DNA from: Asticcacaulis aquaticus
GTDB taxonomy: Bacteria; Pseudomonadota; Alphaproteobacteria; Caulobacterales; Caulobacteraceae
Direction: 5' to 3'
Length of the DNA stretch: 64,000 nt
NCBI RefSeq assembly: GCF_028550415.1
Contig: NZ_JAQQKX010000018.1
Coordinates: 1 to 64,000, forward strand
The notes beneath the pieces are model-generated. The model did not search any database. It saw only the letters and a program-made list of their open reading frames with translations, and was not told the origin of the DNA. The position numbers were made by a program, and so were the translations under genes. Positions within the stretch are counted from its first letter, which is position 1, and each line of letters begins with the position of its first letter. Of this stretch, positions 5,039-63,706 are shown piece by piece.

Positions 5039-5215
5039 ATACCTCCCTGCACTTTAGTGCGGGGAGGGGGACCGCGCCTGAAAGGCGTGGTGGTGGGGTG
5101 TCTTACTTTGTTGCCATCGTACGGCTTGATTTAAGTAAGCGAGAACCCCCACCACCACATCTCACTCACTGCGTTCGTTCGTGCGGTCCCCCTCCCCAAC
5201 AAGTTGGGGAGGTAT
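5039..5215. repeat. Palindromic element, full copy (deoR / rhaM gap)
   Basis: This copy shows the full design. The left arm begins ATACCTCCC with a tip hairpin (GCACtttaGTGC), then GGGGGACCGC and an inner hairpin (CGCCTgaaAGGCG), and ends GGTGGTGGGG. After an unpaired middle, the right arm mirrors it: CCCCACCACCACATCT, then GTGCGGTCCCCCTCCCC, then a tip hairpin ending GGGGAGGTAT. It fills the gap between two convergent genes and could terminate both. Confidence 0.9.
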
Positions 5216-5218
5216 AAA

Positions 5219-5536
5219 TTACGCCATATAAAACACGTGCTTCAGGTCCGTGGCGACCGGTGAATTGTCCGGATTGGTGTCCATGATATCGGCCATATAG
5301 GCCCACCACTTTTTCATCAGCGCCGTCGCGGGCAGGTCGGCCATGGTGTGATCGTCGGTGCGCTTCAGCACGCCGAACAGGGTCAGGGTCTCGGTATCGA
5401 GGAAGATCGAATAGTCCGACACGCCCGCCTCGTGCAGCAGGTCGGCCAGTTCCGGCCAGATTTCGTCGTGGCGCTTCTGGTACTCGGCCTCGAAGCCGGG
5501 TTTCAGTTGCATCTTGAAGCCGTGGATTTGGGTCAT
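5219..5536 (-). CDS. rhaM: L-rhamnose mutarotase
   Basis: This enzyme interconverts the alpha and beta anomers of L-rhamnose and so feeds the isomerase or the dehydrogenase. At 105 residues it has the family length. It keeps the catalytic histidine motif [12 protein letters not shown] (His23, matching His22 of E. coli RhaM), the RWWxYM-like [11 protein letters not shown], and the C-terminal NPDNSPV and HVFYM motifs. ATG 5536 was chosen because it follows AAGAGGAA at a good distance; longer frames run into the palindromic element at 5558. It is probably cotranscribed with the acetylesterase gene upstream, with that element in between. Confidence 0.93.
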
Positions 5537-5557
5537 GGTGTGGTGCTTTCCTCTTAA

Positions 5558-5698
5558 CATCCTCCCCTGTTTACGGGGGAGGTGGTTGCGAATGAAATGA
5601 GCAGACGGAGGGGGCAAAACAGTCGGTAAGGCCCCCACCACCGCATCTAGCGCTTCGCGCGTCGTGCGGTCCCCCTCCCCGGTACACCGGGGAGGTAT
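5558..5698. repeat. Palindromic element, mosaic copy (acetylesterase / rhaM spacer)
   Basis: The left arm is of a second subtype (CATCCTCCCC tip, then GACGGAGGGGGC), while the right arm is of the main subtype (CCACCACCGCATCTAGCGC, GTGCGGTCCCCCTCCCC, tip hairpin, GGGGAGGTAT). The arms therefore pair only partly with each other. It occupies the whole spacer between two same-strand genes, starting 5 bp after the acetylesterase stop and ending 22 bp before the rhaM start. Confidence 0.85.
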
Positions 5699-5702
5699 TA
5701 AG

Positions 5703-12335: not shown

Positions 12336-12340
12336 TGCAT

Positions 12341-12450
12341 CCCCTCTCCCCTGCGGGGAGAGGGTGGTCCGTCAGGACCGGGTGAGGGGGAAAGGACAGA
12401 GTTTCAGGACTCCCCCTCACCCCGGCCCTCTCCCCACAGGGAGAGGGGGT
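12341..12450. repeat. Palindromic element, CCCTCTCCC subtype (GH105 / symporter spacer)
   Basis: Two arms, CCCCTCTCCC-hairpin-GGGAGAGGGTGG and CCCTCTCCCC-hairpin-GGGAGAGGGGG, flank a middle with GGTGAGGGGG and CCCCCTCACCC pairing to each other. It starts 5 bp after the GH105 stop and ends 22 bp before the symporter start, inside what is probably one operon. Confidence 0.85.
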
Positions 12451-12472
12451 ATTTTACGGGGAGTGAAACGAC

Positions 12473-14158: not shown

Positions 14159-14204
14159 AAAAATCATACCTCCCTGCACTTTAGTGCGGGGAGGTATGAT
14201 TTTT
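14159..14204. terminator. Single-hairpin form of the palindromic element, acting as a two-way terminator
   Basis: A near-perfect stem AAAAATCATACCTCCC / GGGAGGTATGATTTTT carries the same GCAC-ttta-GTGC tip seen in the element at 5039. With A and T runs at both ends it can terminate both the plus-strand symporter operon and the minus-strand lactonase gene, whose stop is 2 bp away. Confidence 0.8.
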
Positions 14205-14205
14205 G

Positions 14206-15128: not shown

Positions 15129-15275
15129 CATCCTCCCCTGTGAAACGGGGGAGGTGTCAGCGCGAAGTCGCTGACGGAGGGGGCAATATCGGGTGGGGTG
15201 GCCCCCTCCGTCATCCGCTTCACTTTGTTTCGCGGATGCCACCTCCCCCGTTCGCAGCGCTCACAGGGGAGGATG
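15129..15275. repeat. Palindromic element, second subtype full copy (SDR / lactonase spacer)
   Basis: Arms CATCCTCCCC ... GGGGGAGGTG and CACCTCCCCC ... AGGGGAGGATG are mirror images. Inner segments GACGGAGGGGGC and GCCCCCTCCGTC also pair. It spans nearly the whole spacer between two genes of the rhamnose oxidation operon. Confidence 0.88.
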
Positions 15276-15282
15276 TTAGCAT

Positions 15283-21324: not shown

Positions 21325-21335
21325 AGAGCGCTCCC

Positions 21336-21496
21336 TACTCCCCCGGTGTACCGGGGGAGGTGGCGCGAAGCGCCGGAGGGGGGCTCGCGAAAGTTTAACG
21401 GGCGCAGTGCGTGTTGCGACACCACGAGCCCCCACCACCGCATCTAGCGCTTTGCGCGTCGTGCGGTCCCCCTCCCCGGTACACCGGGGAGGTATG
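21336..21496. repeat. Palindromic element, mosaic copy (kduI / kduD spacer)
   Basis: The left arm is of the second subtype (CTCCCCCGG tip, GCGCCGGAGGGGGGCTC) and the right arm of the main subtype (CCACCACCGCATCTAGCGC, GTGCGGTCCCCCTCCCC, GGGGAGGTATGA). It begins 12 bp after the kduI stop and ends 20 bp before the kduD start. Confidence 0.88.
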
Positions 21497-21516
21497 AAGA
21501 TAACGGGAGACTAATT

Positions 21517-23762: not shown

Positions 23763-23835
23763 AGAACCCCCACCACCACATCTCACCACTTCGTGGTTCG
23801 TGCGGTCCCCCTCCCCGGTACACCGGGGAGGTATA
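23763..23835. repeat. Palindromic element, right half only
   Basis: GAACCCCCACCACCACATCT, inner hairpin (CCACTTCGTGG), GTGCGGTCCCCCTCCCC and tip hairpin CCGGTACACCGG ending GGGGAGGTAT. No left arm lies within 100 bp on its outer side. It shows that one arm can exist, or persist, alone. Confidence 0.85.
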
Positions 23836-30068: not shown

Positions 30069-30078
30069 TCGTATCATC

Positions 30079-30265
30079 TATTCCCCCGGCGTGCCGGGGG
30101 AGGTGGCGGCGAATGAAATGAGCCGACGGAGGGGGGGCTCGCTGAGATGCCACGAATAAACCTGCGGCCCGATAAGGGCGGTACTCCTACTGCGAAGGCC
30201 CCACCACCACATCTAGCGCTACGCGCGTCGTGCGGTCCCCCTCCCCAGTAAACTGGGGAGGTATG
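30079..30265. repeat. Palindromic element, mosaic copy (aminopeptidase / NlpC spacer)
   Basis: Left arm of the second subtype (TTCCCCCGG tip, GACGGAGGGGGGGCTC), right arm of the main subtype (CCCCACCACCACATCTAGCGC, GTGCGGTCCCCCTCCCC, GGGGAGGTATGA). It fills most of the 328-bp gap between the two genes; the remaining 130 bp before the NlpC start probably hold a promoter, but no clear boxes are seen. Confidence 0.88.
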
Positions 30266-30396
30266 ATTGTTGATAGTCCCATTAACCCGACGTTCGCATC
30301 TTTGGGCTATCGTGGCTACATAAGTGCTTCTGCGTTAACGCTTTTTTACGAAGATTAAGCGGCGCAGAGCCGGTGATGGCTGCGAAGGCGAGACAT

Positions 30397-35880: not shown

Positions 35881-35886
35881 CTTTTC

Positions 35887-36064
35887 ATACCTCCCCATCT
35901 CTGATGGGGAGGGGAACCGCACGAGATGACCGAAGGTCAGCGAGATGTGGTGGTGGGGGTTCTTGCTTACTTACTGAACCGCGCCAGTGGTACCAAAGCA
36001 AGAAACCCCACCACCCCTTTGCTGCGCAAAGCGGTCCCCCTCCCCGACAAGTCGGGGAGGTATG
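35887..36064. repeat. Palindromic element, full copy (pheA / ccmG gap)
   Basis: ATACCTCCCCATC-hairpin start, GTGGTGGTGGGG, then CCCCACCACC, GCGGTCCCCCTCCCC and tip CGACAAGTCG ending GGGGAGGTATGA. It lies between convergent genes, ending 2 bp from the ccmG stop. Confidence 0.88.
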
Positions 36065-36066
36065 AT

Positions 36067-38227: not shown

Positions 38228-38396
38228 AAGAGCCCCCACCACCACATCTTGCCTGCCTTCGGCAGTCTCGTGCGGTCCCCCTCCCCAGCAAGCTGGGGAG
38301 GTATAAGAAATGTTCACTAAATCATACCTCCCCAGCAAGCTGGGGAGGGGGACCCCGCCCGCAGGGCGGGGTGGTGGGGGTTCTTGAGGCAGCGCC
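38228..38396. repeat. Two half elements, tail to tail (ccmA / ccmB spacer)
   Basis: A right half (38228-38305: GAGCCCCCACCACCACATCT ... CTCCCCAGCAAGCTGGGGAGGTAT) is followed by a left half (38323-38396: ATACCTCCCCAGCAAGCTGGGGAG ... GGTGGTGGGGGTTCTTG). The order is reversed relative to a complete element, and both tips have the same AGCAAGCT core. The pair separates ccmA from ccmB by 204 bp. Confidence 0.88.
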
Positions 38397-43357: not shown

Positions 43358-43526
43358 CATCCTTCCCCGTTTACGGGGAAGGTGGCAGGGCAGCCGTAAG
43401 GCTGAACTGACGGAAGGGGGAAACCGTGGTAACTCCAAACATTGTCAGACTTGTTTGAAGCTCCGCATCCCCCTTCCGTCTCGTCGCTCCGCGCCGATCC
43501 ACCTTCCCTTTAAAAGGGGAAGGATG
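43358..43526. repeat. Palindromic element, CCTTCCCC subtype
   Basis: CATCCTTCCCCGTTTACGGGGAAGG opens the element (quoted in overlapping parts: CATCCTTCCCC, GTTTAC, GGGGAAGG) and CCTTCCC ... GGGGAAGGATG closes it. GACGGAAGGGGGAAA and CCCCCTTCCGTC pair inside. With the nrdB terminator it accounts for the 347-bp gap before the next gene. Confidence 0.87.
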
Positions 43527-43936: not shown

Positions 43937-43938
43937 TA

Positions 43939-44081
43939 TTCCCCTCTCCCTGAGGGAGAGGGTCGGGCGGTGAAACTGACCGGGGTGAGGGGGAACTGGT
44001 AATTCCGCGCTCGGCTCAAACATTTCCCCCTCACCCGGCTTCACTTCGTTCTGCCACCCTCTCCCTCAGGGAGAGGGGATT
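43939..44081. repeat. Palindromic element, CCCTCTCCC subtype (convergent gap)
   Basis: TCCCCTCTCCCTGAGGGAGAG opens and CTCTCCCTCAGGGAGAGGGGA closes (each about 20 bases), with GGTGAGGGGGAA and TTCCCCCTCACC pairing in the middle. It fills the gap between two convergent genes. Confidence 0.87.
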
Positions 44082-44093
44082 AAGACGTGATCT

Positions 44094-45215: not shown

Positions 45216-45327
45216 GGGGTTTCTACACTGCGTAACGAAGACTTTTAGCGTCTTCTGATTAGCAGCGTCTTAACGCTTGTTTACCATGCGCGACAATCGG
45301 GAAATTTTGTGAGATGCGCCTCGGCTT

Positions 45328-45504
45328 ATACCTCCCTGCACTTGTGCGGGGAGAGGGACCGCGCCTGAAAGGCGTGGTGGTGGGGTGTCTTGCAGAGGTT
45401 AAAACAAAAACAGGCGAGGAAAAAGTAAGCAAGAACCCCCACCACCACATCTCACCGCTTCGCGGCTCGTGCGGTCCCCCTCCCCGGCATAGCCAGGGAG
45501 GTAT
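45328..45504. repeat. Palindromic element, full copy (EIIA / HPr spacer)
   Basis: ATACCTCCC, tip GCACttGTGC, GGACCGCGCC, inner hairpin, GGTGGTGGGG; then ACCCCCACCACCACATCT, GTGCGGTCCCCCTCCCC and GGGAGGTAT. It starts 3 bp after the EIIA stop and ends 113 bp before the HPr start. Confidence 0.9.
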
Positions 45505-45507
45505 AAT

Positions 45508-46484: not shown

Positions 46485-46504
46485 GCGTGGCTCCCGGATT
46501 TCCT

Positions 46505-46680
46505 ATACCTCCCTGCGCTTTAGTGCGGGGAGGGGGACCGTGAGCAGAGCGAGCGGTGGTGGGGTGTCTTACGGAGGTTCAACGACCCCTGACGCAAGTA
46601 AGCAAGAACCCCCACCACCGCATCTAGCCGCGCAGGCGCGGCGTCGTGCGGTCCCCCTCCCCAACAAGTTGGGGAGGTAT
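46505..46680. repeat. Palindromic element, full copy (chvG / hprK spacer)
   Basis: ATACCTCCC, tip GCGCtttaGTGC, GGGGGACCGTGAGC, GGTGGTGGGG; then AACCCCCACCACCGCATCT, GTGCGGTCCCCCTCCCC and GGGGAGGTAT. It occupies nearly the whole space between the chvG stop (6 bp away) and the hprK start (20 bp away). Confidence 0.9.
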
Positions 46681-46686
46681 GTATTC

Positions 46687-48255: not shown

Positions 48256-48258
48256 CTT

Positions 48259-48432
48259 ATACCTCCCTGCGCTTGCGCGGGGAGGGGGACCATTGGCAGA
48301 GCCAATGGTGGTGGGGTGTCTTGCGAAGATTCAATGGCCGCTGACGTTGGAAAGTAAGAACCCCCACCACCACATCTCAATGACCTTTGGTCATTTCGTG
48401 CGGTCCCCCTCCCCAACAAGTTGGGGAGGTAT
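48259..48432. repeat. Palindromic element, full copy (chvI / chvG spacer), supplies the chvG ribosome site
   Basis: ATACCTCCC, tip GCGCttGCGC, GGGGGACCATTGGC, GGTGGTGGGG; then AACCCCCACCACCACATCT, GTGCGGTCCCCCTCCCC and GGGGAGGTATGA. Read on the minus strand the element ends GGGAGGTATAAG directly before the chvG ATG. Confidence 0.9.
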
Positions 48433-48455
48433 GAAGGGGGGATTACCTGCATCAA

Positions 48456-51098: not shown

Positions 51099-51100
51099 TA

Positions 51101-51300
51101 TATAGTTCCCTGTTTACGGGGCCAGAGAGCGCTTACATCCTTCCCCGATTACGGGGCCAGAGACGCTGATAATCCTTCCCCGATTACGGGGCCAGAGACA
51201 CTGATAATCCTTCCCCGTTTACGGGGCCAGAGACACTGATAATCCTTCCCCGTTTACGGGGCCAGAGACACTGATAATCCTTCCCCGTTTACGGGGAAGG
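51101..51300. repeat. 35-bp tandem array of a palindromic-element tip
   Basis: Units start at 51101 (degenerate), 51136, 51171, 51206, 51241 and 51276 (partial). Each unit has AATCCTTCCCCGTTTACGGGG and then CCAGAGACACTGAT. The CCCCGTTTACGGGG part is the hairpin tip of the CCTTCCCC-type element that follows. The second and third units have GATTAC in the loop and the later ones GTTTAC, so the array shows a gradient of change. It begins 3 bp after the stop of the upstream gene. Confidence 0.92.
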
Positions 51301-51448
51301 TGGATCGACGTCGACAGACGGCGAGACGGAAGGGGGAAAACCGTAGAGGCCCTAAAACGCCATCAGTCTTTATTGAAACACCGTTTCCCCCTTCCGACGT
51401 TCAACCGCTTCGCGCTTGCCCGCCACCTTCCCCGTGAACGGGGAAGGA
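51276..51448. repeat. Palindromic element, CCTTCCCC subtype, joined to the tandem array
   Basis: AATCCTTCCCC, GTTTAC, GGGGAAGGTGG opens and CCACCTTCCCC, GTGAAC, GGGGAAGGATT closes. GACGGAAGGGGGAAA and TTTCCCCCTTCCGACG pair inside. With the array and the terminator at 51493 it explains the 447-bp gap between two convergent genes. Confidence 0.88.
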
Positions 51449-51492: not shown

Positions 51493-51524
51493 AAAGGCCG
51501 CCTCCGTTACCGGAAGCGGCCTTT
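51493..51524 (-). terminator. Terminator after the chemoreceptor gene
   Basis: AAAGGCCGC and GCGGCCTTT pair with a partly paired loop. On the minus strand it ends CCTTTTG, and it lies 22 bp after the stop. Confidence 0.8.
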
Positions 51525-51545
51525 GTTTTAACCCATATACAAACC

Positions 51546-53228: not shown

Positions 53229-53430
53229 GACGAGGCTCCTGATGCGGGACGCGGAAAAGACGAGAGCGTGACGGGTATAGGTAACCCTGTTGCTTCTCCA
53301 TCTCACAGGAACGGTAAATCAGCCGTTAATCATCTTATAGTTTCTTTATTAAAAACAACAAGATGAGTTTCGTTTGCAAATTCTGCGGTATCATATCGCC
53401 GTTAATGAACGGCGGCGAGTTCACCGTTCG

Positions 53431-54266: not shown

Positions 54267-54270
54267 AGTG

Positions 54271-54588
54271 TCAGGCGCGCCGTTTGAGATCGGCCAGCAT
54301 TGCCTTTCGCAGGATGGCGTTCAGGCGCGTCTGGTAGCCCTTGCCGGACGATTTGAGCCACGCCATCACATCGGCATCGAGCCGCACGGTCGCCTGTTGT
54401 TTGACAGGACGCCTAAACGGATTGCGTACGGCGTTTTTCCAAAAGTCGTCGGTCAGTGGTGGAATGTCGCTGACGTCGATTTCATTGTCCGGACGCGCTG
54501 CCAAGGCGTTGATTTCAGCTTTCTGCTTATCTGTCAAAGGCGGCGGATTGGTGGGATCGAATTGATATCGAACGATTTTTGATTTCAT
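54271..54588 (-). CDS. BrnA-like antitoxin (orphan)
   Basis: A 105-residue protein. The C-terminal half has the BrnA antitoxin pattern PVKQQATVRLDADVMAWLKS, then GKGYQTRLNAILRKAM, a ribbon-helix-helix DNA-binding domain. The N-terminal half (PPPLTDKQKAEINAL and DVSDIPPLTDDFWKNA) is the usual toxin-binding region. A BrnT toxin gene would be expected just upstream, but the 344 bp there contain only stop-rich sequence and the second repeat family. It therefore looks like an antitoxin without its toxin, now cotranscribed with the zinc-ribbon and VOC genes. Confidence 0.78.
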   Translation of the reverse strand: MKSKIVRYQFDPTNPPPLTDKQKAEINALAARPDNEIDVSDIPPLTDDFWKNAVRNPFRRPVKQQATVRLDADVMAWLKSSGKGYQTRLNAILRKAMLADLKRRA

Positions 54589-54742
54589 GGTGTGGATGGC
54601 GCTCTTTATTTTATTCGGCGCGGTAATCTACGATAATGCAGATAGAGCAAATAATCGAGAGCAGATTCCATTTCTGAATGGCTATCCGTGAAAACGGCAA
54701 GGTTTACCTCGCACCTGACGGGCACGTGACCGTAGCCGCTAA

Positions 54743-54902
54743 GATTTGACCACGAAAAACACGAAAAGCACGAACTTCTTTGCGTGAAACCACCGCGCGA
54801 AGCGATCAAATGTTTCATGTGTCGCAATGACATAAGGCCCTTCGGGCGAAGATGTATTCGTCTACTTTTTCGTGCTTTTCGTGTTTTTCGTGGTCAAAAT
54901 CT
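54743..54902. repeat. Second repeat family, copy 2
   Basis: Arms GATTTGACCACGAAAAAC-ACGAAAAGCACGAA and TTCGTGCTTTTCGTGT-TTTTCGTGGTCAAAATC mirror each other. The middle shares GTGAAACCACCGCGCGAAGCG-like sequence and a CCCTTCGGG hairpin with the copy at 31293. The bases 54589-54742 before it carry no gene that I can support. Confidence 0.88.
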
Positions 54903-54932
54903 TACTTAATTTACCAAAGACTAAGCCATCGG

Positions 54933-57782
54933 CTAGTGCGCCTCGTCCCAGTTGAGCGCGGCCTTGGCTTCGACGTCGAGCGGTACCGAAATGTCGATGG
55001 CGGGCAGGGCGGCGTTCTTCATCACATTGATGATTACCGCCTTGGCTTTTTCGACCTCGGCGTCCGGCGCTTCGAAGATCAGTTCGTCGTGGACCTGTAA
55101 TAGCATCTTCGTGCTCAGGTCCGCGGCCTCAAGCATGGCAGGCATGCGGATCATGGCGCGGCGGATAATGTCGGCGGCCGTCCCTTGAATCGGCGCATTG
55201 ATCGCGGCGCGTTCGGCGAAGGCGCGCTGGGCCGCCGACTTGGCATTGACGTCAGGGATATTGATGCGGCGGCCGAAGATCGTCTCGACATAGCCCTTCG
55301 CTTTCACCTGATCGCGGGCGGCGTCCATATAGGCCTTGATGCCGGGGAAGCGCTCGAAATAGGTCTTGATATAGCGTCCGGCTTCGCCGTTATCGATGCC
55401 GAGCTGGTTGCCGAGACCGAAGGCCGAGATGCCGTAGATGATGCCGAAATTGATGGCCTTGGCACGGCGGCGGACCTCGGACGGCATGCCTTCGATCGGC
55501 ACATCGAACATTTCCGACGCCGTCATGGCGTGGATGTCGAGCCCGTCGGTAAAGGCCTTTTTGAGCTGTTCGATGTCACCGATATGGGCCAGCAGGCGCA
55601 GTTCGATCTGCGAATAGTCCGCCGAGATCAGCTTATGGCCGTCCTTGGCGATAAAGGCGGTGCGGATCTTGCGCCCTTCCTGCGTGCGGATGGGGATATT
55701 TTGCAGGTTTGGCTCGTTCGACGACAGGCGGCCCGTCGTCGTCGCGGCCAGTTGGTACGAGGTGTGGATGCGTTGCGTCTTCGGATCGGCATATTCGACC
55801 AGGGCGTCGGTATAAGTGCCTTTCAGCTTGGCCATCTGCCGGTAATCGAGCAGCAGGCGGGCGAGGGGCTGGCCTTTTTCGGCGAGGTCTTCGAGGACTT
55901 TAACATCGGTCGCCCACTGGCCAGAGGCGGTCTTCTTACCGCCGGGCAGGGCCATTTCGTCGAAGAAAATGGCGCCGAGTTGCTGCGGCGAATTGAGGTT
56001 GAACGGTCGCCCGACCAGCTTATGCGCTTCGGCCTCGATATCACCCATGCGCGCGCCGAAATCCTGGGACAGGAGACGCAGAACCTGCGGATCGACGCGG
56101 ACCCCGGCCAGTTCCATGTCTGACAGGACAGTGGGCATGTCGCGCTCCAGCGTCTCGTAGACGGTGAGCAGGCGCTGCTGAACCAGTTGCGGCTTAAGCA
56201 CGTGCCACAGGCGAAGCGTGATGTCGGCGTCTTCGGCGGCGTAGTGCGTGGCGGGACCGAGGTCGACGAACTTGAACGATTTGGCGCTCTTACCCGTGCC
56301 GGCGACCTGCTTGAACGGGATCGGCGTGTGACCGAGGTGCAGTTCCGACAGTTCGTCCATGCCGTGGCCGTGCATCCCGGCCTCAAGCACGTAGGAGATC
56401 AGCATGGTGTCGTCATAGGGCGCGACGCGGATGCCGTAGCGGGCAAAGACCGACAGGTCGTATTTGATATTCTGCCCGACCTTGAGCACCGCCGGGTCTT
56501 CGAGCAGCGGCTTCAGAACAGCGAGCGCCTCATCGAGCGGAATCTGCTTCAGCGTGTCGCCGGATAACGCCAGACCGCCCTGATCGGATTCGTGGCCCAG
56601 CGGGATATAGATGGCCGAGCCGACGCCGCAACTCAGCGACACGCCGACAAGGCCCGAGCTGGTGGCCGACAGGGCGTCGGTTTCGGTATCGACGGCAAAG
56701 ACGCCTGCGGCCTTGCACTGCGCGACATAGGCGCTCAGGGTGCCGATATCCTGAACGCACTGATAGGCGTCGTAATTGACCGGGGTCAGCAGGGCCTCGG
56801 GCGTGGCGGCCTTCGGTGTCGGCGCCTGACCCGTGGTGCCGAACAGCGGTTTGGATACCGGGGCCTTCGGCAGGTCTCCGGCCTTAGATTGCGCAGTTTC
56901 CAGCACGCTGAGCGAACCGCCGACGCGACGGGCCAGAGAGGTGAACTCCATCTCGGCCAGGAAGGCCCCAAGCTCTGTCGCGTCCGGGTCTTTCAGGGCG
57001 AATTCGTCGATGGGGCAGGGCGGCGGCACGTCGGCGCGCAGGCGGACCAGTTCGCGCGACAGCAGGATCTGGTCGCGGAACTCGGTCAGGGCCTCGCGGC
57101 GCTTGGGCTGTTTGATTTCCTGCGCGCGCTCAAGCAACGCATCGAGCGAGCCGTATTCGAGGATCAGTTGCGCGGCGGTCTTGACGCCGATACCCGGCGC
57201 GCCGGGGACGTTGTCGGTCGAGTCGCCGATCAGGGCCTGAGCATCGACGACCAGCTCCGGCGGGACGCCGAACTTTTCGATGACCTGATCGCGTTTGACC
57301 GGCGTGCCCTTGACCGGATCGAGCATGGAGACGTGGTCATTGACCAGTTGCATCAGGTCCTTGTCGGACGAGACGATAGTGACCTCAAAGCCCTCTTCGA
57401 CCGCCATTTTCGCATAGGTGCAGATCAGATCGTCGGCTTCGAAGCCGCTCAGTTCGACATTGTGGATGCCAAACGCCTTCGTCGCCTGACGGATCAGGGG
57501 AAACTGCGGGATCAGGTCTTCGGGCGCGGGCGGGCGGTGGGCCTTGTACTGATCGTAGAGGTCGTTGCGGAAGGTGTGCGATCCGGCGTCGAAAATGACC
57601 GCCAGATGCGAAGGTGCGTCGTCGCCGCGGTTCTCTTTGATCAGCTTATACAACATGTTGCAAAAGCCCGACACCGCGCCCACCGGCAGGCCGTCGGACT
57701 TGCGCGTCAGCGGCGGCAGGCCGTGATAGGCGCGGAAGATATAGCCGGAACCGTCGATCAGGACGAGGCGCTTTGCGGACAT
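54933..57782 (-). CDS. polA: DNA polymerase I
   Basis: A 949-residue repair and Okazaki-fragment polymerase. The 5'-3' exonuclease domain (1-290) has SGYIFRAYHGLPPL, FDAGSHTFRND and SGFEADDLI. The 3'-5' exonuclease domain keeps VFAVDTETDAL, so proofreading looks intact. The polymerase domain has motif A (DYSQIELRLLAHI), motif B (RRAKAINFGIIYG) and motif C (LQVHDELIFE). The length and the end (ALNWDEAH) are typical. It stands alone on the minus strand. Confidence 0.97.
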   Translation of the reverse strand: MSAKRLVLIDGSGYIFRAYHGLPPLTRKSDGLPVGAVSGFCNMLYKLIKENRGDDAPSHLAVIFDAGSHTFRNDLYDQYKAHRPPAPEDLIPQFPLIRQATKAFGIHNVELSGFEADDLICTYAKMAVEEGFEVTIVSSDKDLMQLVNDHVSMLDPVKGTPVKRDQVIEKFGVPPELVVDAQALIGDSTDNVPGAPGIGVKTAAQLILEYGSLDALLERAQEIKQPKRREALTEFRDQILLSRELVRLRADVPPPCPIDEFALKDPDATELGAFLAEMEFTSLARRVGGSLSVLETAQSKAGDLPKAPVSKPLFGTTGQAPTPKAATPEALLTPVNYDAYQCVQDIGTLSAYVAQCKAAGVFAVDTETDALSATSSGLVGVSLSCGVGSAIYIPLGHESDQGGLALSGDTLKQIPLDEALAVLKPLLEDPAVLKVGQNIKYDLSVFARYGIRVAPYDDTMLISYVLEAGMHGHGMDELSELHLGHTPIPFKQVAGTGKSAKSFKFVDLGPATHYAAEDADITLRLWHVLKPQLVQQRLLTVYETLERDMPTVLSDMELAGVRVDPQVLRLLSQDFGARMGDIEAEAHKLVGRPFNLNSPQQLGAIFFDEMALPGGKKTASGQWATDVKVLEDLAEKGQPLARLLLDYRQMAKLKGTYTDALVEYADPKTQRIHTSYQLAATTTGRLSSNEPNLQNIPIRTQEGRKIRTAFIAKDGHKLISADYSQIELRLLAHIGDIEQLKKAFTDGLDIHAMTASEMFDVPIEGMPSEVRRRAKAINFGIIYGISAFGLGNQLGIDNGEAGRYIKTYFERFPGIKAYMDAARDQVKAKGYVETIFGRRINIPDVNAKSAAQRAFAERAAINAPIQGTAADIIRRAMIRMPAMLEAADLSTKMLLQVHDELIFEAPDAEVEKAKAVIINVMKNAALPAIDISVPLDVEAKAALNWDEAH

Positions 57783-57935
57783 GTGGGCTCGCTTATAAAA
57801 GGTCAGATGGCTTCTTAAAACGATCCGCCCGCGATGCCAATTACTTATCCCTTCTCGCTGAGCGGAGAGGGAATGGGTGTTGATTTTTGTATATGTTTTG
57901 TTGTTTGAAAAGCAACATTTTGTTGAAAATGTATA

Positions 57936-57954
57936 TGTTGTGTGATATACAACA
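57936..57954 (+). promoter_or_regulatory. Candidate HigA operator at the higB start
   Basis: TGTTGT-gtgatat-ACAACA is an inverted repeat ending 2 bp before the higB ATG. Related half-sites (GTTGTTT, GCAACA, TTTGTTG) lie in the 50 bp before it, all in a strongly AT-rich stretch with TATATG boxes. Antitoxin autorepression sites usually overlap the promoter like this. Confidence 0.55.
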
Positions 57955-57956
57955 TT

Positions 57957-58238
57957 ATGATTGAAAGCTTTGCAGATCGACTGACTGAGCAGTTGTTTGA
58001 GGGTGTTGCCGTCAAGCGCATGGATGCCGGTTTGCAGAAGCAGGCCCTACGACGATTGATCTATCTGAACGCGGCGGTGAGTCTCGAAGATTTGAGGGTG
58101 CCGCCATCAAATCGGCTGGAGGCCCTGCAAGGCGATCGCAAGGGTTTCTATTCGATCCGCGTCAATGATCAATGGCGCATTGTCTTTAAATGGCTTGAGG
58201 GTAATGCGCACGAGGTCGAGTTCGTGGATTATCATTAG
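57957..58238 (+). CDS. higB: HigB-type toxin (RelE superfamily)
   Basis: A 93-residue predicted ribosome-dependent mRNA interferase. Family motifs are the start MIESFAD, LRRLIYLNAA, LEALQGDRKGFYSIRVND and QWRIVFKW near the C-terminus, which contain the basic and aromatic residues of HigB/RelE active sites. Toxin before antitoxin is the normal order of higBA. ATG 57957 was chosen over an in-frame codon 15 bp upstream because it matches the family start and leaves the operator untranslated. No clear ribosome site is present, which would keep toxin levels low. Confidence 0.9.
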   Translation: MIESFADRLTEQLFEGVAVKRMDAGLQKQALRRLIYLNAAVSLEDLRVPPSNRLEALQGDRKGFYSIRVNDQWRIVFKWLEGNAHEVEFVDYH

Positions 58239-58268
58239 GCTAGACTGCACGTACGTGCAGTCTAGCCT
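58237..58268. repeat. Perfect 32-bp palindrome between higB and higA
   Basis: The 16-base half AGGCTAGACTGCACGT is followed at once by its exact reverse complement. It begins inside the higB stop codon and ends 28 bp before the higA ATG. No T run follows. It can form a cruciform in DNA or a 16-bp hairpin in the message, and is not one of the dispersed families of this window. Confidence 0.95.
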
Positions 58269-58296
58269 GTAACCAAAGCATGTCAATGGTGGTTAA

Positions 58297-58596
58297 ATGG
58301 TTGATTATATTGAAATTGATCCTCCCGGCCTCATGCTGAAAGAGGATTTCCTCGACGACCTTAATGTGCGTCCGGGTACTTTTGCGGCGGCCATCAAGGT
58401 GGACCGTGCCGCGATCAAGGCGATCATCGAAGGCCGTCGTGCGATCACGGCTGAAATGGCCCTGCGTTTCGGCCTGTTCTTCGGCACCAGTCCGGAGTTC
58501 TGGCTGAACCTGCAAAAGGATTACGACCTGCGCAAGGTTAAACGCGAGCGGCTTGAAGACCTGACGGCGCAGATCAAGCCGCTCAAGGTCGCGTAA
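58297..58596 (+). CDS. higA: HigA-type antitoxin (Xre-family HTH)
   Basis: A 99-residue antitoxin and autoregulator. The N-terminal IDPPGLMLKEDFLDDLNVRPGTF and the helix-turn-helix AAAIKVDRAAIKAIIEGRRAITAEMALRFG (quoted in part) are typical, as is FFGTSPEFWLNLQKDYDLRK. It neutralises HigB and represses the operon. The spacing to higB (58 bp) is larger than the usual 10-20 bp because of the palindrome. Confidence 0.93.
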   Translation: MVDYIEIDPPGLMLKEDFLDDLNVRPGTFAAAIKVDRAAIKAIIEGRRAITAEMALRFGLFFGTSPEFWLNLQKDYDLRKVKRERLEDLTAQIKPLKVA

Positions 58597-58611
58597 ACCT
58601 TCGCGTAAAAA

Positions 58612-58773
58612 GGCCCCCACCACCACATCTCACCGACTTTGTCGGCTCGTGCGGTCCCCCCTCTCCAGCAAGCTGGGGCGATATAAGAATTACAGAACCT
58701 CTCCAACGTCATACCTCCCTGCCAAGGGCGGGGAGGGGGACCACGCCTGAAAGGCGTGGTGGTGGGGGAGGGG
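58612..58773. repeat. Two half elements, tail to tail (higA / OsmC gap)
   Basis: Right half 58612-58684 (GGCCCCCACCACCACATCT, GTGCGGTCCCCCCTCTCC, GGGGCGATAT) and left half 58710-58773 (ATACCTCCC, GGGGGACCACGCC, GGCGTGGTGGTGGGGG). Same reversed order as at 38228. The right tip has point changes (CTCTCC, GGGGCG), so this copy is decaying. Confidence 0.85.
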
Positions 58774-58815
58774 CTTCACCAGCAAGCGCCGCCGTAGGAT
58801 TTGACGCACAAAAAA

Positions 58816-58837
58816 AGCCCGGAGCTGCCTCCGGGCT
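58816..58837 (-). terminator. Terminator after the OsmC-family gene
   Basis: AGCCCGGAG and CTCCGGGCT form a perfect 9-bp stem with a four-base loop; on the minus strand it is followed by seven T. Confidence 0.9.
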
Positions 58838-58861
58838 TTCGTGCGTTCAAGCGGCGCAAAC

Positions 58862-59296
58862 CTAAGCCAGCGTCGCCTCAAGCGTGATCGGCACCGAGGC
58901 CAGCGCCTTGGAAATCGGGCAGTTGGCCTTGGCCCCGGCGGCCAGTTCCTGAAACTGCTCGTCCGATACGCCCGGAATCTGCGCCTTGAGCTTCAGCGTG
59001 ATGCCGACGATGGAAAACCCGGCCTCCGACGGCTTCACATCGACCAGAGCTTCGGTTTCCAGCTGTTCCGCCGTGAACCCGGCCTTGGCGAGGGCAAATG
59101 ACAGCGCCATCGTAAAACAGCCCGAGTGGGCGGCGGCGATCAGTTCTTCCGGATTGGTGCCCGACTTGCCCTCTTCGTCGCCGAAGCGGGTCTTGAAGCT
59201 GTAGGGCTGGGCGGTGAAGGCGCCGCTCTGGGTCGTCAGGGTGCCCGTGCCGGTCATGCCGTCGCCGCGCCATTGGGCGGTTGCCGTGCGTATCAT
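58862..59296 (-). CDS. OsmC-family peroxiredoxin
   Basis: A 144-residue OsmC-type peroxidase for organic hydroperoxides. The two redox cysteines are in AHSGCFTMAL and ANCPISKAL, and GTNPEELIAAAH is the family signature before the first. It is a cytoplasmic homodimer in known members. A second, more distant OsmC-fold protein is encoded at 61969. Confidence 0.93.
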   Translation of the reverse strand: MIRTATAQWRGDGMTGTGTLTTQSGAFTAQPYSFKTRFGDEEGKSGTNPEELIAAAHSGCFTMALSFALAKAGFTAEQLETEALVDVKPSEAGFSIVGITLKLKAQIPGVSDEQFQELAAGAKANCPISKALASVPITLEATLA

Positions 59297-59491
59297 CGTC
59301 CGTCTCCGTTTTTAAATGAAAGGATAGCCTTAACGCGGCTGGGGAGGAGTGGTATCCCGGCATTTGTAAACAGGCAATGGGTCAATTGGGGCTCAGTTTC
59401 ACCTCACTGAACCGTGACGATAGAAACCGTCGTTTGCCGGGGCGATGTCGTCAGCTAAACTGAGGGCGTTAGCTGAGAACGGTATCCGATT

Positions 59492-60253
59492 ATGTGCGAA
59501 CTTTTGGGCATGAGCGCCAATGTCCCCACCGACATTCGCTTTTCCTTTGCCGCTCTGGCGCGGCGCGGCGGCGATACCGGCCCGCACGCCGACGGCTGGG
59601 GCATCAGCTTTTACGAGCAGAAGGGTTGCCGCAGCTTCCACGACCCGAACCCGTCGGCGACGTCGGAGCTGGCGGCGCTGGTGCGCAGCTACCCCATCAA
59701 GTCGAAGACCGTCATCGCCCATGTGCGCAAGGCCAATCGCGGTCGCGTGACGCTGGAAAACACCCATCCGTTCACGCGTGAACTGTGGGGCCGGGCGTGG
59801 ACCTTCGCCCATAATGGGCAATTGAAGGGCGTCAAAACCCTGCCGCTGAGTTTCTTCCGTCCTATCGGTACGACCGATTCCGAACACGCCTTCTGCTGGA
59901 TTCTCGATCAGCTGGTGCGCAAATATATGGATTATCCGCCCGCGCGGGTGCTGGACAAGGAGGTCAAGCGGCTGTTCGGCGAACTGCGTAAGCTGGGGGT
60001 ATTCAACGCGCTTCTGACCGACGGGCGGTCGCTCTACGCCAGTTGCTCGAAGAAGCTGACCTATATCCAGCGTCGCGCGCCGTTCGGTAAGGCCAGCTTG
60101 ATCGACGCCGACATGCAGGTCGACTTCGCCGAAGAAACGACGCCTGACGACAAGGTCATCATTATCGCCACCCAGCCCCTGACACACGATGAGGTATGGA
60201 CGCCGATCGAACCGGGTTCGTCGCTGGTGTTTCGCTCGGGCGAAGTGATTTAG
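59492..60253 (+). CDS. Class II glutamine amidotransferase (YafJ-like)
   Basis: A 253-residue stand-alone Ntn-type glutaminase domain. The N-terminal nucleophile is Cys2 (MCELLGMS), exposed after removal of Met1. Other conserved segments are HADGWGISFY, IAHVRKANRG and TFAHNGQLKG, which bind glutamine and form the oxyanion hole. The acceptor of the ammonia is unknown for this family. The next gene starts 9 bp after the stop and is probably cotranscribed. Confidence 0.92.
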   Translation: MCELLGMSANVPTDIRFSFAALARRGGDTGPHADGWGISFYEQKGCRSFHDPNPSATSELAALVRSYPIKSKTVIAHVRKANRGRVTLENTHPFTRELWGRAWTFAHNGQLKGVKTLPLSFFRPIGTTDSEHAFCWILDQLVRKYMDYPPARVLDKEVKRLFGELRKLGVFNALLTDGRSLYASCSKKLTYIQRRAPFGKASLIDADMQVDFAEETTPDDKVIIIATQPLTHDEVWTPIEPGSSLVFRSGEVI

Positions 60254-60262
60254 GAGATGCCC

Positions 60263-61228
60263 ATGACCCAGGCTATTCGCGCTCACCGTCACGGCGGTCC
60301 CGAGGTTCTCACGTGGGAGACGGTCGAGGTCGGTGCGCCCGGTCCCGGCGAAGTGCGCCTGCGTCACACCGCCATCGGCGTCAATTTCATAGACACCTAT
60401 TTCCGGTCGGGCCTGTACAAAACCGACCTGCCGTTTACGCCGGGGAACGAAGGCGCGGGCGTGATCGAAGCGATCGGTGACGGCGTCACGGATTTAAAAC
60501 CCGGCGACCGCGTGGTCTATGTCGGCAGCCCCGGTTCTTATGCCGAAGCGCGCATCATGCCGGCGGACAAGCTGGTTCCCATTCCCGACGGGATCAGCGA
60601 TACGGTGGCCGCGGCCGCATTTTTGAAGGGCCTGACGGCGCAATATCTGCTGCGGCGGACCTTCCGCGTCGGGCCGGACCATACGGTGCTCTACCACGCG
60701 GCGGCAGGCGGGGTAGGTCTGCTGTTCGGGCAGTGGGCCAGGCATCTGGGGGCCACGGTCATCGGCACGGCGGGTTCGGACGAGAAAGTTGAACTGGCCC
60801 GCCAGAATGGTTACGACCACCTGATCAATTACCGTACCGAAGACTTCGTGGCACGCGTTCACGAGATTTCCGGAAAGGTGGATGTGGTCTACGATTCCGT
60901 TGGCAAGGATACCTTCGACGGCTCGCTCGATGTGCTGAAGCCGCTCGGCCTGTTCGTGTCGTTCGGGCAATCGTCGGGGCCGGTGCCGCCGTTCGATATC
61001 GGCGTACTGAATACCAAGGGCTCGCTGTTCATGACGCGGCCTTCGGTGTTCGGTTATAACCGCGACCGGGCGACACTGCTGGAATCGGCGGGCGAACTGT
61101 TCGATCTGATCGGGCGCGGGATTATCACCGTCTCGATCCCCCAGACCTTTGCGCTGAAAGACGCGCGCGCGGCCCACGAAGCACTTGAGGGCCGCGCCAC
61201 GACGGGCAGCACGCTGCTGATACCTTAA
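60263..61228 (+). CDS. NADPH:quinone oxidoreductase (zinc-independent MDR)
   Basis: A 321-residue medium-chain reductase of the QOR type. The GroES-like domain has GVNFIDTYFRSGLY and PGNEGAGVIEAIG, and the Rossmann domain has YHAAAGGVGLLFGQWARHLGA. No zinc-binding cysteines are present. It reduces quinones by one-electron transfer in related enzymes. ATG 60263 is used because AGGAG, which overlaps the upstream stop, lies 6 bases before it; an ATG 6 bp earlier is too close. It is convergent with, and overlaps by four bases, the next gene. Confidence 0.92.
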   Translation: MTQAIRAHRHGGPEVLTWETVEVGAPGPGEVRLRHTAIGVNFIDTYFRSGLYKTDLPFTPGNEGAGVIEAIGDGVTDLKPGDRVVYVGSPGSYAEARIMPADKLVPIPDGISDTVAAAAFLKGLTAQYLLRRTFRVGPDHTVLYHAAAGGVGLLFGQWARHLGATVIGTAGSDEKVELARQNGYDHLINYRTEDFVARVHEISGKVDVVYDSVGKDTFDGSLDVLKPLGLFVSFGQSSGPVPPFDIGVLNTKGSLFMTRPSVFGYNRDRATLLESAGELFDLIGRGIITVSIPQTFALKDARAAHEALEGRATTGSTLLIP

Positions 61229-61836
61229 CCCATCGGATCGCGGGGGCCGGTCGAGACCAGAACGGTTTCCGGTTCCGGTTTGCGTGGCGCCTCGGAATTG
61301 ACGGTTTCACGCCCCTCGAAGGCAGGGATGTCGAGGTCGGCGTGGCCGGTGTCACCGACCTGAGCCTGTTCGCCCGTGAAAAACGCCTTGATATAACCAA
61401 GGCCCGCCGCGATCATGCCGGGGCTGTCCCAGAACTCGGCTTCGGCGGCCTCAAACCGCAGCAGAAGCAGGTTCGGGTCGTCCTTGCCTTTCGGGAACCA
61501 CGCCTTATCGACTTCCGACCACAGTTCGTCGATTTTGGCGCGGTCGCGGCTGATGGTGATCGTGCCGTTGAGCGAGACGTAATTGTGCCCGTCGGTATCG
61601 GCATAGGTCAGAAGGGCCGCGGGATTGGCGGTGATCTCTTCGACCTTGCCCGTATCGGCGCCGGTAAAAAACCACAGCACACCTTGAAAGCCGCTGTTTT
61701 TCTCAATCTTCTGCTGCTGCATCGGGCGGGCGTGCAACAGGCCATTGGCGTTATAGGTCGCCAGCATGGCCACCTTGATGTCCTTGATCAGGGACCAGAT
61801 GCGGTCGCGGGCCTCACGGCCATAAAGGGTCGTCAT
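61225..61836 (-). CDS. Pyridoxamine 5'-phosphate oxidase-fold general stress protein
   Basis: A 203-residue flavin-binding split-barrel protein. Marks of the group are IKVAMLATYNANGLLHARPMQ, LWFFTGADTGKVEEI, YVSLNGTITISRDRAKI and DELWSEVDKAWFPKGKDDPNL (each quoted in part). Related proteins bind FMN and are induced by general stress, but the reaction is unknown. The C-terminal 40 residues are polar and variable. ATG 61836 was chosen over an in-frame codon 36 bp upstream. Confidence 0.88.
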   Translation of the reverse strand: MTTLYGREARDRIWSLIKDIKVAMLATYNANGLLHARPMQQQKIEKNSGFQGVLWFFTGADTGKVEEITANPAALLTYADTDGHNYVSLNGTITISRDRAKIDELWSEVDKAWFPKGKDDPNLLLLRFEAAEAEFWDSPGMIAAGLGYIKAFFTGEQAQVGDTGHADLDIPAFEGRETVNSEAPRKPEPETVLVSTGPRDPMG

Positions 61837-61968
61837 GTTTGCCTCTTTCGCTAAGAAATTCGGCCCCGCCACGCGCTCTTACAAGACGGCGTCAGGCGTA
61901 AATTTGCCATACGAAAGCGGACGGTTTGCGTTATGGTTCCCTTTTCGCGACGCTTTACGGAGACCCAC

Positions 61969-62355
61969 ATGGCGCAGGCCCATGCCCGGATCGGCACCAC
62001 CAATTACCTGACGACCATCGAGAGCGCCGGCCGCACCCTCATCGCCGACGAACCCGAAGCCCTGGGCGGTGGCAATGCCGGGTTCGCGCCCTACGATCTG
62101 CTGCTGGCGGCGTTGGCGGCCTGCACGTCGATCACGCTGCGCATGTATGCCGAGCGCAAAGGCTTTGCACTGCAAGGGCTTGAGGTCGACTTGCACCACG
62201 CGAAAGACAATAAACGGTCGAAGATCACACGCGAGGTGCGTCTGATCGGCGATCTGAGCGACGAGGCCCGCGCGCGGCTGGCCGAGGTGGTCGAGCGCAC
62301 GCCGGTGACCCTGACGCTGAAAGAAGGCGCGGATATTGCGACGCGATTTATATAG
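61969..62355 (+). CDS. OsmC-fold protein, second paralogue
   Basis: A 128-residue protein with the OsmC fold (GGNAGFAPYDLLLAALAACTSITLRMYAERKG region). The first redox cysteine is present in AACTSITL, but where the second would be expected the sequence reads VERTPVTLTL without a cysteine. It is thus like the YhfA or SsoOsmC-like members with one cysteine, and peroxidase activity is doubtful. ATG 61969 follows GGAG at 8 bases. Its 3' end overlaps the end of dinB by 8 bases. Confidence 0.87.
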   Translation: MAQAHARIGTTNYLTTIESAGRTLIADEPEALGGGNAGFAPYDLLLAALAACTSITLRMYAERKGFALQGLEVDLHHAKDNKRSKITREVRLIGDLSDEARARLAEVVERTPVTLTLKEGADIATRFI

Positions 62356-63448
62356 CCAGCGACAATTGCTGCGGTTCGGGGCGGGCATCGTTGGCGCCTA
62401 ATGACGACAGGGTGACGCCGAGCAACCGGATGCCCTTGGCCAGAGGGAACACACCGTCGAGCAGGGTGCCCGACACGCGTGAGAGTTCCGCTTTGTCGCC
62501 CACCGTGGCATTGGCGGTGTGGCTGCGGGTGATCTGCTGAAAGTCGGTATATTTGACCTTGAGCGTCACCGTGCGGCCGCGCGTGCCGTTCTGCTCGCAA
62601 TAACGCCAGACCTTTTCGACGATGGGCTGCAAGGCCGCGCGCGCTGCGTCGGCTGAGAAGATGTCCTGAAAGAAGGTGTTTTCGGCGCCGACGGATTTGC
62701 GTACCCGGTCCGGCCGTACCTGACGATGATCGATGCCGCGCGCGATATTGTGGTAATAGTCGCCCGACACGCCGAAGTGCTTTTGCAGGAAGGGCAGGGA
62801 CTGCGCCCGCAAATCGGCTCCGGTCATGATGCCCAGGCGGTTCATCTTCTCCTCGGTCGCCGGGCCGATGCCGTGAAAACGGCCGACCATCAGGGTTTCG
62901 ACGAATTCCGGCCCCATGCGCGGGGTGATGACATAGAGCCCGTCGGGCTTACGGTAATCCGACGCCATCTTGGCCAGAAACTTGTTGTACGACACCCCTG
63001 CCGACGCCGTCAGGCCCGTCGCCAGCTTGATGCGGGCGCGAATTTCCTGCGCGATCAGGGTCGCCGAGCCGACGCCCTTGTGGTTTTCGGTGACGTCGAG
63101 ATAGGCCTCGTCCAGCGACAGCGGCTCGACCAGATCGGTATAGTCCTCGAAGATATCACGGATCTGCTTTGACACGGCCTTGTAGGCGTCGAAGCGCGGC
63201 TTGACGAAGATCAGGTCCGGGCATTTGCGCCGCGCCGTGACCGAGGGCATGGCCGAGCGGATGCCGAACTTGCGCGCCTCATAACTGGCCGCCGCCACGA
63301 CGCCGCGTTCCATGCCGCCGACCGCGACCGGCTTGCCGCGCAGATCGGGGTTATCGCGTTGTTCGACCGAGGCGTAGAAGGCATCCATATCGATATGGAT
63401 GATCTTCCGCATTCCAGTTCTTGGGGGATGGTTTTCGATCTCGTCCAT
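62348..63448 (-). CDS. dinB: DNA polymerase IV (Y family)
   Basis: A 366-residue translesion polymerase. Catalytic acids lie in IHIDMDAFYASVE and SLDEAYLDV; the steric-gate region and YEARKFGIRSAMPS are typical. The C-terminal little-finger domain is complete. The final residues EPQQLSLAI resemble a beta-clamp binding motif (QLSLA). An SOS box lies 25 bp upstream of the ATG, so LexA control is expected. An alternative ATG lies 36 bp downstream. Confidence 0.95.
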   Translation of the reverse strand: MDEIENHPPRTGMRKIIHIDMDAFYASVEQRDNPDLRGKPVAVGGMERGVVAAASYEARKFGIRSAMPSVTARRKCPDLIFVKPRFDAYKAVSKQIRDIFEDYTDLVEPLSLDEAYLDVTENHKGVGSATLIAQEIRARIKLATGLTASAGVSYNKFLAKMASDYRKPDGLYVITPRMGPEFVETLMVGRFHGIGPATEEKMNRLGIMTGADLRAQSLPFLQKHFGVSGDYYHNIARGIDHRQVRPDRVRKSVGAENTFFQDIFSADAARAALQPIVEKVWRYCEQNGTRGRTVTLKVKYTDFQQITRSHTANATVGDKAELSRVSGTLLDGVFPLAKGIRLLGVTLSSLGANDARPEPQQLSLAI

Positions 63449-63472
63449 GATGTGCGTTCCGCGACGTTATGA

Positions 63473-63487
63473 GAACATACGCAGAAC
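63473..63487 (-). promoter_or_regulatory. LexA (SOS) box upstream of dinB
   Basis: On the minus strand the sequence is GTTC-TGCGTAT-GTTC, an exact match to the alphaproteobacterial LexA site GTTC-N7-GTTC. It ends 25 bp before the dinB start codon, a usual operator position. Confidence 0.88.
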
Positions 63488-63533
63488 TTAGCACAAAAAG
63501 AGAACAAATCAATAGGTCTGATTCGCCGTACCT

Positions 63534-63706
63534 ATACCTCCTTGCGCTTGCGCGGGGAGAGGGACCGTTGGCGGAGCCAATGGTGGTGGGGTGTCTTGCT
63601 GAGGTGGAACGAACACAGTTGTAAGAAAGCAAGAACCCCCACCACCACATCTCACCGCCTTTGGCGGCTCGTGCGGTCCCCCTCCCCGGCGTAGCCAGGG
63701 AGGTAT
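63534..63706. repeat. Palindromic element, full copy (ada/ogt / dinB spacer)
   Basis: ATACCTCC, tip GCGCttGCGC, GGGACCGTTGGC, GGTGGTGGGG; then AACCCCCACCACCACATCT, GTGCGGTCCCCCTCCCC and GGGAGGTAT. It starts about 50 bp upstream of the LexA box of dinB and ends 8 bp from the stop of the methyltransferase gene. Confidence 0.9.

What the first reader, a model, noticed from the sequence alone, without database searches (positions are those of the whole stretch)
5039..63706. Dense family of hairpin-armed palindromic elements in intergenic and intra-operon gaps
About 18 copies occur in 64 kb, at 5039, 5558, 12341, 14159, 15129, 21336, 23763, 30079, 35887, 38228 (pair), 43358, 43939, 45328, 46505, 48259, 51276, 58612 (pair) and 63534. 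The full element is a long inverted repeat whose two arms each carry a tip hairpin with CCTCCCC/GGGGAGG-type stems and an inner hairpin; the inner arm sequences GGTGGTGGGG and CCCCACCACC can pair with each other. Loop bases vary while stems co-vary (for example GCGC/GCGC, CCGG/CCGG, AGCT), as expected if RNA or cruciform structure is selected. None interrupts a gene. At least eight lie inside probable operons. They contain no gene and resemble non-autonomous, MITE- or REP-like elements.
Basis: partly seen in the sequence, partly recalled or inferred. Interest (0 to 1): 0.8.

Follow-up and report, generated by a model that had tools for sequence, protein, structure and literature searches.

The report
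Paired triplex-forming repeats, relatives of BoxC
The window is studded with short paired repeats at gene ends whose arms follow the pairing rules of a three-stranded DNA fold, which makes them relatives of the known BoxC repeats of E. coli, spread by a mechanism that remains unidentified.

Summary
In detail: all 18 listed sites carry hairpin-armed repeats. The genome has at least 149 type-A arms; the genus is very probably Asticcacaulis.

Each arm reads Y-loop-R-spacer-H: a C-rich strand, its G-rich complement, usually an inner hairpin, then a second G-rich strand. H is the mirror image of R, with A or T at each A. That is the class II purine-motif intrastrand triplex code. One window arm (12414-12447, minus) fits the published BoxC/PIT/TM_ECO pattern exactly; types A, B and D are divergent relatives. 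Duplex and third strand change together across types and genomes (weaker).

Elements lie mostly just behind stop codons and rarely between divergent genes. They differ in presence and type between species.

The RAYT idea fails here: no Y1 transposase match in this genome, and in only 3 of 22 other same-genus genomes. The mobiliser is unknown. I rate this a new variant of a known kind; the three-strand covariation is the notable part.

The parts
5039..5215 (+). A/A element (left arm 5039-5098, right arm 5147-5215)
5558..5701 (+). B/A hybrid element; G029 has a similar hybrid with other stem sequences
12336..12452 (+). C/C element; the arm 12414-12447 (minus) fits the published TM_ECO pattern exactly (second loop CCG)
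14159..14204 (.). tip-only remnant; G029 has a full B/A element at this site
15129..15276 (+). B/B element
21330..21498 (+). B/A hybrid element
23768..23834 (+). solo A arm (right-arm type)
30076..30267 (+). B/A hybrid element (left arm read by eye, right arm 30199-30264); absent in G029
35885..36066 (-). A/A element in reverse orientation; absent in G029
38228..38386 (+). tail-to-tail A pair, tips 19 bp apart; C element in G029, B in G089 and G104, empty in G109
43358..43526 (+). D/D element behind a terminator T-run; absent in G029
43937..44082 (+). C/C element; G029 has an ordinary hairpin with T-run here
45325..45507 (+). A/A element; left arm is B type in G029
46502..46683 (+). A/A element; reduced to a tip hairpin in G133 and G099
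48256..48435 (+). A/A element; G029 has the same left arm and another right arm
51106..51447 (+). D/D element (51279-51447) with an abutting 35-bp x 5.5 tandem array of its tip (51106-51296)
58612..58770 (+). tail-to-tail A pair, tips 26 bp apart
63531..63709 (+). A/A element; no element at this site in G089, G042, G133, G109 and G099

Best explanation
These are paired repeats of the BoxC (PIT/TM_ECO) kind. The unit is one arm: a C-rich strand Y, a loop, its G-rich complement R, usually an inner hairpin, then a second G-rich strand H. H mirrors R with A or T at each A, so one DNA strand can fold into a purine-motif triple helix (class II). Two arms normally face each other, so each strand always carries one triplex-forming arm. 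Shown by sequence: the arm grammar, the three-strand code and its covariation, the placement behind stop codons, the turnover between species. Inferred: the arms fold when DNA is single-stranded, most likely at replication forks; template switching at hairpins and exchange between copies keep the stems matched and swap arms; an unidentified factor, not a RAYT in this genome, creates new copies; copies survive where they harm least, behind stop codons and away from promoters.
For: Mirror H only in 138, direct H only in 15 of 440 asymmetric strand-wise detections; 167 with mirror H against a mean of 41.7 (maximum 59 of 200 draws) when R is paired with another arm's downstream sequence. Duplex and third strand change together: 48 of 48 and 24 of 26, 100 of 102 cells with 0 of 20000 permutations as good, and at one orthologous site (12336). 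In 29 pairs with unlike duplexes the arm's own H fits better than the partner's in 15, worse in 3, equal in 11. Exact BoxC arm in the window, with E. coli matches over at least 80% of it in 4746 of 5426 genomes. Double-sided changes without G-U at the two most variable tip pairs, and no G-T in 52 right-arm inner hairpins. Placement. Presence/absence and arm replacement between species. No PF01797 here.
Against: Counts are of related sequences; there are only about seven to ten R/H classes. The 8-bp pattern is weak: 24 of 32 cells, 812 of 20000 permutations as good, and its backward control also matched in the own genome (16 against 32 real). Own H beats cross-arm H pairing only 17 to 7. One tip pair carries a standing T-G wobble on the Y-R-H strand in 27 of 80 arms, and left-arm inner hairpins are less clean (7 GT, 12 AC, 52 other of 374 cells). 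66 of 228 hairpins have no mirror H. Holder et al. saw no triplex in vivo. No mover was found.
Confidence: 0.55

Rival explanations
1. RNA-level elements: hairpins in message 3' ends that stabilise, attenuate or terminate transcripts, with stems selected as RNA.
For: Positions behind stop codons, rare between divergent genes; very stable RNA folds; a standing T-G pair on one strand; at 43937 a relative has an ordinary terminator-like hairpin.
Against: Little G-U elsewhere: none at the two most variable tip pairs, none in right-arm inner hairpins. Holder et al. state that purine-motif triplexes do not form in RNA and cite no promoter or terminator activity for PIT elements. In 43000-62999 terminator-like sites were no more frequent than in shuffles (20 against 18.6) and two element tips were among them.
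Confidence: 0.2
2. Mutational homogenisation: template switching and conversion at palindromes keep stems matched without selection, and the R-H relation is merely inherited from a few founders.
For: Double-sided stem changes without intermediates; two inverted loops, CAAG for CTTG; template switching is described as able to create and maintain hairpins (PMC8794818, search listing only); few R/H classes.
Against: A mirror repeat cannot be made by template switching between complementary arms; each R/H class obeys the code, and both alleles keep it in six genomes that hold both.
Confidence: 0.25
3. REP/REPIN elements moved by a RAYT (Y1 HUH) transposase.
For: Paired inverted hairpins, head-to-head and tail-to-tail arrangement, high copy number; PF01797 is present in some relatives (24 of 149 genomes).
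Against: No PF01797 match in this genome, 3 of 22 other same-genus genomes, none in 8 of 16 high-copy genomes that I chose; no GTAG next to the tip in 20 aligned arms.
Confidence: 0.08
4. A classical MITE of a DDE transposon with target duplication.
For: Inverted ends ATACC/GGTAT; T-runs on both sides of the element at 43358 could be a duplication.
Against: No evident duplication at the other presence/absence sites or at E. coli araA-araD; solo arms and tail-to-tail pairs are common.
Confidence: 0.06

Closest known systems
BoxC / PIT / TM_ECO intrastrand triplex motif (Holder et al. 2015, PMC4666352)
   Same: Class II order Y-R-H, mirror third strand, intergenic, often inverted pairs of unlike arms, variable between close relatives; type C arms fit its pattern
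   Different: Types A, B and D have other stems and a 10-30-nt hairpin-forming second loop instead of 3 nt; much higher density here
REP / BIME / REPIN with RAYT
   Same: Intergenic hairpin units in head-to-head and tail-to-tail pairs, mosaic composition
   Different: Third strand; no RAYT in this genome; no GTAG tag beside the tip
CGTC-tagged REPs of Alphaproteobacteria (PMC3733652)
   Same: No dedicated transposase known; mostly head-to-head pairs; CGTC before and CCA after the inner hairpin in many B and D arms
   Different: Published stems of 8-9 bp with A-T outer pairs; no third strand is described in what I read (section 6, part 1 of the discussion, passages)
Caulobacter CIR repeats (Chen and Shapiro 2003, seen only through review PMC2229807)
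   Same: Same bacterial family, two arms and a linker, intergenic
   Different: GANTC is not enriched here: 4 against 8.8 expected

Membership tests
BoxC / PIT / TM_ECO | Pattern CCCTCNCCC N3-6 GGGNGAGGG N3 GGGNGAGGG, type C arms | tested here: met
   Window 12414-12447 (minus) fits exactly; other C arms with a 3-nt second loop in L047, L051, L055, L056, L058. C arms with an inner hairpin do not fit the 3-nt loop.
BoxC / PIT / TM_ECO | The same pattern, types A, B and D | tested here: not met
   Other stems and longer second loops
BoxC / PIT / TM_ECO | Class II order with mirror third strand | tested here: met
   138 mirror-only against 15 direct-only of 440; 162 of 228 hairpins with a mirror H
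BoxC / PIT / TM_ECO | Intergenic, in inverted pairs | tested here: met
   42 of 44 rows without overlap of a called gene; 77 distinct paired elements
BoxC / PIT / TM_ECO | Folds into a triplex in vitro | not testable with these tools
   Shown for TM_ECO oligonucleotides by Holder et al., not for these arms
REP / REPIN | RAYT in the genome | tested here: not met
   PF01797: 0 here, 3 of 22 other same-genus genomes
REP / REPIN | GTAG tag beside the hairpin | tested here: not met
   Tips are bounded by GGTCCC and TAT in the 20 aligned window A arms; types B-D were not checked systematically
CGTC REP | CGTC tag, 8-9-bp stem with outer A-T pairs, CCA tail | tested here: inconclusive
   Tags seen around many B and D inner hairpins, stems differ; read by eye
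CIR | Conserved GANTC site | tested here: not met
   4 sites in 5007 bases against 8.8 expected
MITE | Target-site duplication | tested here: inconclusive
   Four presence/absence sites at 86.9% identity, one possible T-run duplication

The most novel reading that the evidence does not exclude
Three-strand covariation shows that a single-stranded DNA triple helix, not an RNA hairpin, is the form under selection or used for copying in a repeat superfamily found across Proteobacteria. These would then be repeats whose spread depends on an evolved DNA triplex, read by an unknown factor, probably at replication forks.
Probability: 0.33. Interest if true: 0.85.

Novelty: new variant of a known kind. 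Interest (0 to 1): 0.6.

Why it matters
BoxC-type repeats are widespread, and the papers I read assign them no function and no mover. Earlier surveys selected them by assuming the triplex pattern; here duplex and third strand are seen to change together across types and genomes, which is evolutionary evidence for a DNA triplex. The idea can be tested directly by swapping H strands. The larger family (types with inner hairpins, hybrids, remnants) also gives more material for finding the mover.

Tried and rejected
Rejected: RAYT mobilisation in this genome; CIR membership by GANTC; an Rfam family; spread of the A element on plasmids or phages, where blastn with one copy (5039-5216) found nothing, although the C arm had 33 plasmid places in E. 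coli; terminators as the main role (43000-62999 only).

Led nowhere: literature searches for a name in this group. A search for triplex covariation listed 12 of 43 papers, among them Holder et al. but none whose title or abstract shows three-strand covariation in repeats. Target duplications stay open, since the one near relative is 86.9% identical over 23.8 kb.

Weak or unfair tests: one search compared within-arm code and cross-arm pairing under unequal rules, so I rely, which is weaker. The 8-bp pattern gave 24 of 32 cells, and its backward control matched in 7 of 190 genomes, the own one included (my count). For the 10-bp pattern the backward control matched in 6 of 398 genomes (my count); those sequences are not printed. 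In one search I used 74 of the 134 non-homopolymer lines printed (hand count), dropping near-repeats; by eye the 60 dropped lines obey the code. That list covers 20 of the 53 matching genomes. Gene positions come from my own simple caller. Element rows count a few hairpins twice (L055) and tail-to-tail pairs as two.

Full report
What is there. The window lies in a 4.0-Mb draft genome, 99.92% complete. The near relative G029 matches Asticcacaulis sp. YBE204 by a contig length of 534586; this is inference.

Anatomy. An arm on its class II strand reads Y, loop, R, spacer, H. Type A: CCTCCCC / GGGGAGG / GGTGGGG. Type B: the same stem with H = GGAGGGG. Type C: CCCTCTCCC / GGGAGAGGG / GGGTGAGGG. Type D: CCTTCCCC / GGGGAAGG / GGAAGGGG. 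The spacer usually forms an inner hairpin of varied sequence. In the usual element two arms face inward. In seven pairs that I read off they stand tail to tail, tips 16-26 bp apart. B/A hybrids occur at 5558, 21330 and 30076. In type A one arm has a short inner hairpin and the other a longer one framed by ACATCT and CGTGC.

Abundance. All 22 other same-genus genomes in that draw have A arms at E of 7e-10 or better; other genera of the family gave only weaker matches, best 8e-8. Twenty stretches of 20 kb elsewhere in the genome held 25 element rows, against 19 in the 64-kb window; 7 of the 20 held none.

The three-strand code. H is the reverse, not the reverse complement, of R, with A or T at each A. 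Simple duplication or inversion does not make such a mirror. In about 1.6 Mb there were 440 strand-wise detections of asymmetric purine-stem hairpins: 138 with a mirror H only, 15 with a direct H only, 29 with both, 258 with neither; when each R was tried on the downstream sequence of an arm with another R, a mean of 41.7 and at most 59 matched in 200 draws, against 167 observed. Each hairpin is seen from both strands; counted once, 157 of 228 have H on one side, 5 on both, 66 on neither, of which 6 have a direct H. Part of this material was fetched with patterns that ask for a G-rich H but leave its variable positions open.

Covariation. A pattern with open positions in Y, R and H matched 53 of 398 genomes of the phylum. 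Two alleles dominate: R GGGGAGAGGG with H GGGTGAGGGG, and R GGGGAGAAGG with H GGATGAGGGG. In the 74 lines that I tabulated, R8 = A had non-G at H3 in 48 of 48 and R8 = G had G in 24 of 26; 6 of the 20 genomes hold both alleles. In fetched loci 100 of 102 cells obey, with 0 of 20000 permutations as good; for the 8-bp pattern 24 of 32, with 812 of 20000 as good, and the direct-order control 14 of 32. At the orthologous site 12336 the left arm has the first allele here and the second in G029, all three strands changed. In 29 of 77 pairs the arms have different duplexes; there the own H fits better than the partner's in 15, worse in 3, equal in 11, and better than cross-arm pairing of the H strands in 17, worse in 7, equal in 5. 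These counts are of sequences, not of independent events.

DNA or RNA. Over 87 A arms the two most variable tip pairs show no G-U (GC 41, AU 38; GC 36, CG 23, AU 17, UA 4); the next pair has one, and outer pairs have six. Against a clean DNA reading, the fourth pair reads C-A on the modelled strand, thus T-G on the Y-R-H strand, in 27 of 80 arms. Right-arm inner hairpins: 24 distinct stems in 52 arms, 244 Watson-Crick and 18 other cells, no G-T, no A-C; left-arm: 303 Watson-Crick, 7 G-T, 12 A-C, 52 other in 68 arms, some of which may not be true arms. Holder et al. state that purine-motif triplexes cannot form in RNA. Template switching at palindromes can also give double-sided changes (listing only), so stem covariation alone does not prove selection.

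Placement. With my own gene caller (coding fraction 0.85) 44 element rows in 464 kb fall into 32 tandem, 11 convergent and 1 divergent context; two of the tandem rows overlap a called gene. By gaps, 28 of 247 tandem, 11 of 67 convergent and 1 of 67 divergent gaps hold an element (divergent against the rest p = 0.004). In 30 tandem rows the stop side is closer in 21, the start side in 8, equal in 1 (p = 0.024); medians 11.5 and 67 bp. One element lies within the 3' end of a homogentisate dioxygenase gene and supplies most of the 54 residues beyond its Pfam domains.

Turnover. Fourteen of the 18 sites could be compared with G029: 10 are occupied there, 4 are not. Occupied sites can differ in type: tail-to-tail A pair here and C there at 38215 (B in G089 and G104, empty in G109), left arm A against B at 45325, another right arm at 48256, tip-only here and full there at 14159. 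At 46502 G133 and G099 keep only a tip hairpin. In 23.8 kb of collinear sequence (86.9% identical) G029 has two elements that this genome lacks: one right behind a stop codon between neighbouring genes of one direction, one between convergent genes whose ends overlap here.

Kinship to BoxC. The 38-base C arm matches at least 80% of its length in 4746 of 5426 E. coli genomes; 30908 places are on chromosomes and 33 on plasmids, at a permissive E limit of 1. In eight araA-araD alleles three hold the motif and five do not; the W and TUM13881 alleles differ by 54 bp without an evident target duplication. Holder et al. report TM_ECO 3610 times in 262 proteobacterial genomes, intergenic in E. coli K-12, five inverted pairs of unlike arms there, and a triplex in vitro but no support for a stable one in vivo (introduction part 1, results parts 1-3 of 4, discussion part 1 of 2 read).

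Mover. PF01797 has no match here, matches in 3 of 22 other same-genus genomes, and none in 8 of 16 high-copy genomes of other groups that I chose. The mover remains unknown.

Other papers. PMC3733652: passages, section 6 and part 1 of the discussion. PMC2229807 and PMC2267715: passages. Chen and Shapiro 2003 is not held.

Verdict. The elements are real and belong with BoxC-like intrastrand triplex repeats. I found no description of types A, B and D, their inner hairpins or three-strand covariation in my searches, which cover open-licence papers only.

Noticed in passing
window 51106-51296: 35-bp unit repeated 5.5 times, made of the D-type tip hairpin plus a short spacer, abutting a D element; looks like slippage at the hairpin.
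   Followed up: partly
window 31290-31450 and 54740-54905; also L047, L057, L086, L095: A second inverted-repeat family of about 165 bp with ends TTTGACCACGAAAAACACGAAAAGCACGAA.
   Followed up: partly
window 57942-58596: HigB-like toxin gene and a partner with a weak helix-turn-helix match (below the Pfam cut-off), with a perfect palindrome at 58237-58268 between them; absent at this site in G029.
   Followed up: partly
L057 7740-9176 (-): Homogentisate 1,2-dioxygenase gene whose last about 54 codons lie mostly in a C-type element.
   Followed up: partly
window 38324-38379 and 58711-58767: Tip loops inverted (CAAG instead of CTTG), both in tail-to-tail pairs; the G029 counterpart of the second has CTTG.
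   Followed up: no
L083, at the place of window 35885 and 30076: G029 holds about 780 and 735 bp of other sequence, without an element, where this genome has elements.
   Followed up: partly
G700: One alphaproteobacterial genome has 286 matches to the 8-bp pattern, far above the others in that search; a good place to look for a mover. It has one weak PF01797 match.
   Followed up: no
araA-araD in E. coli (L262-L269): REP array of varying length with or without one BoxC arm at its end.
   Followed up: partly
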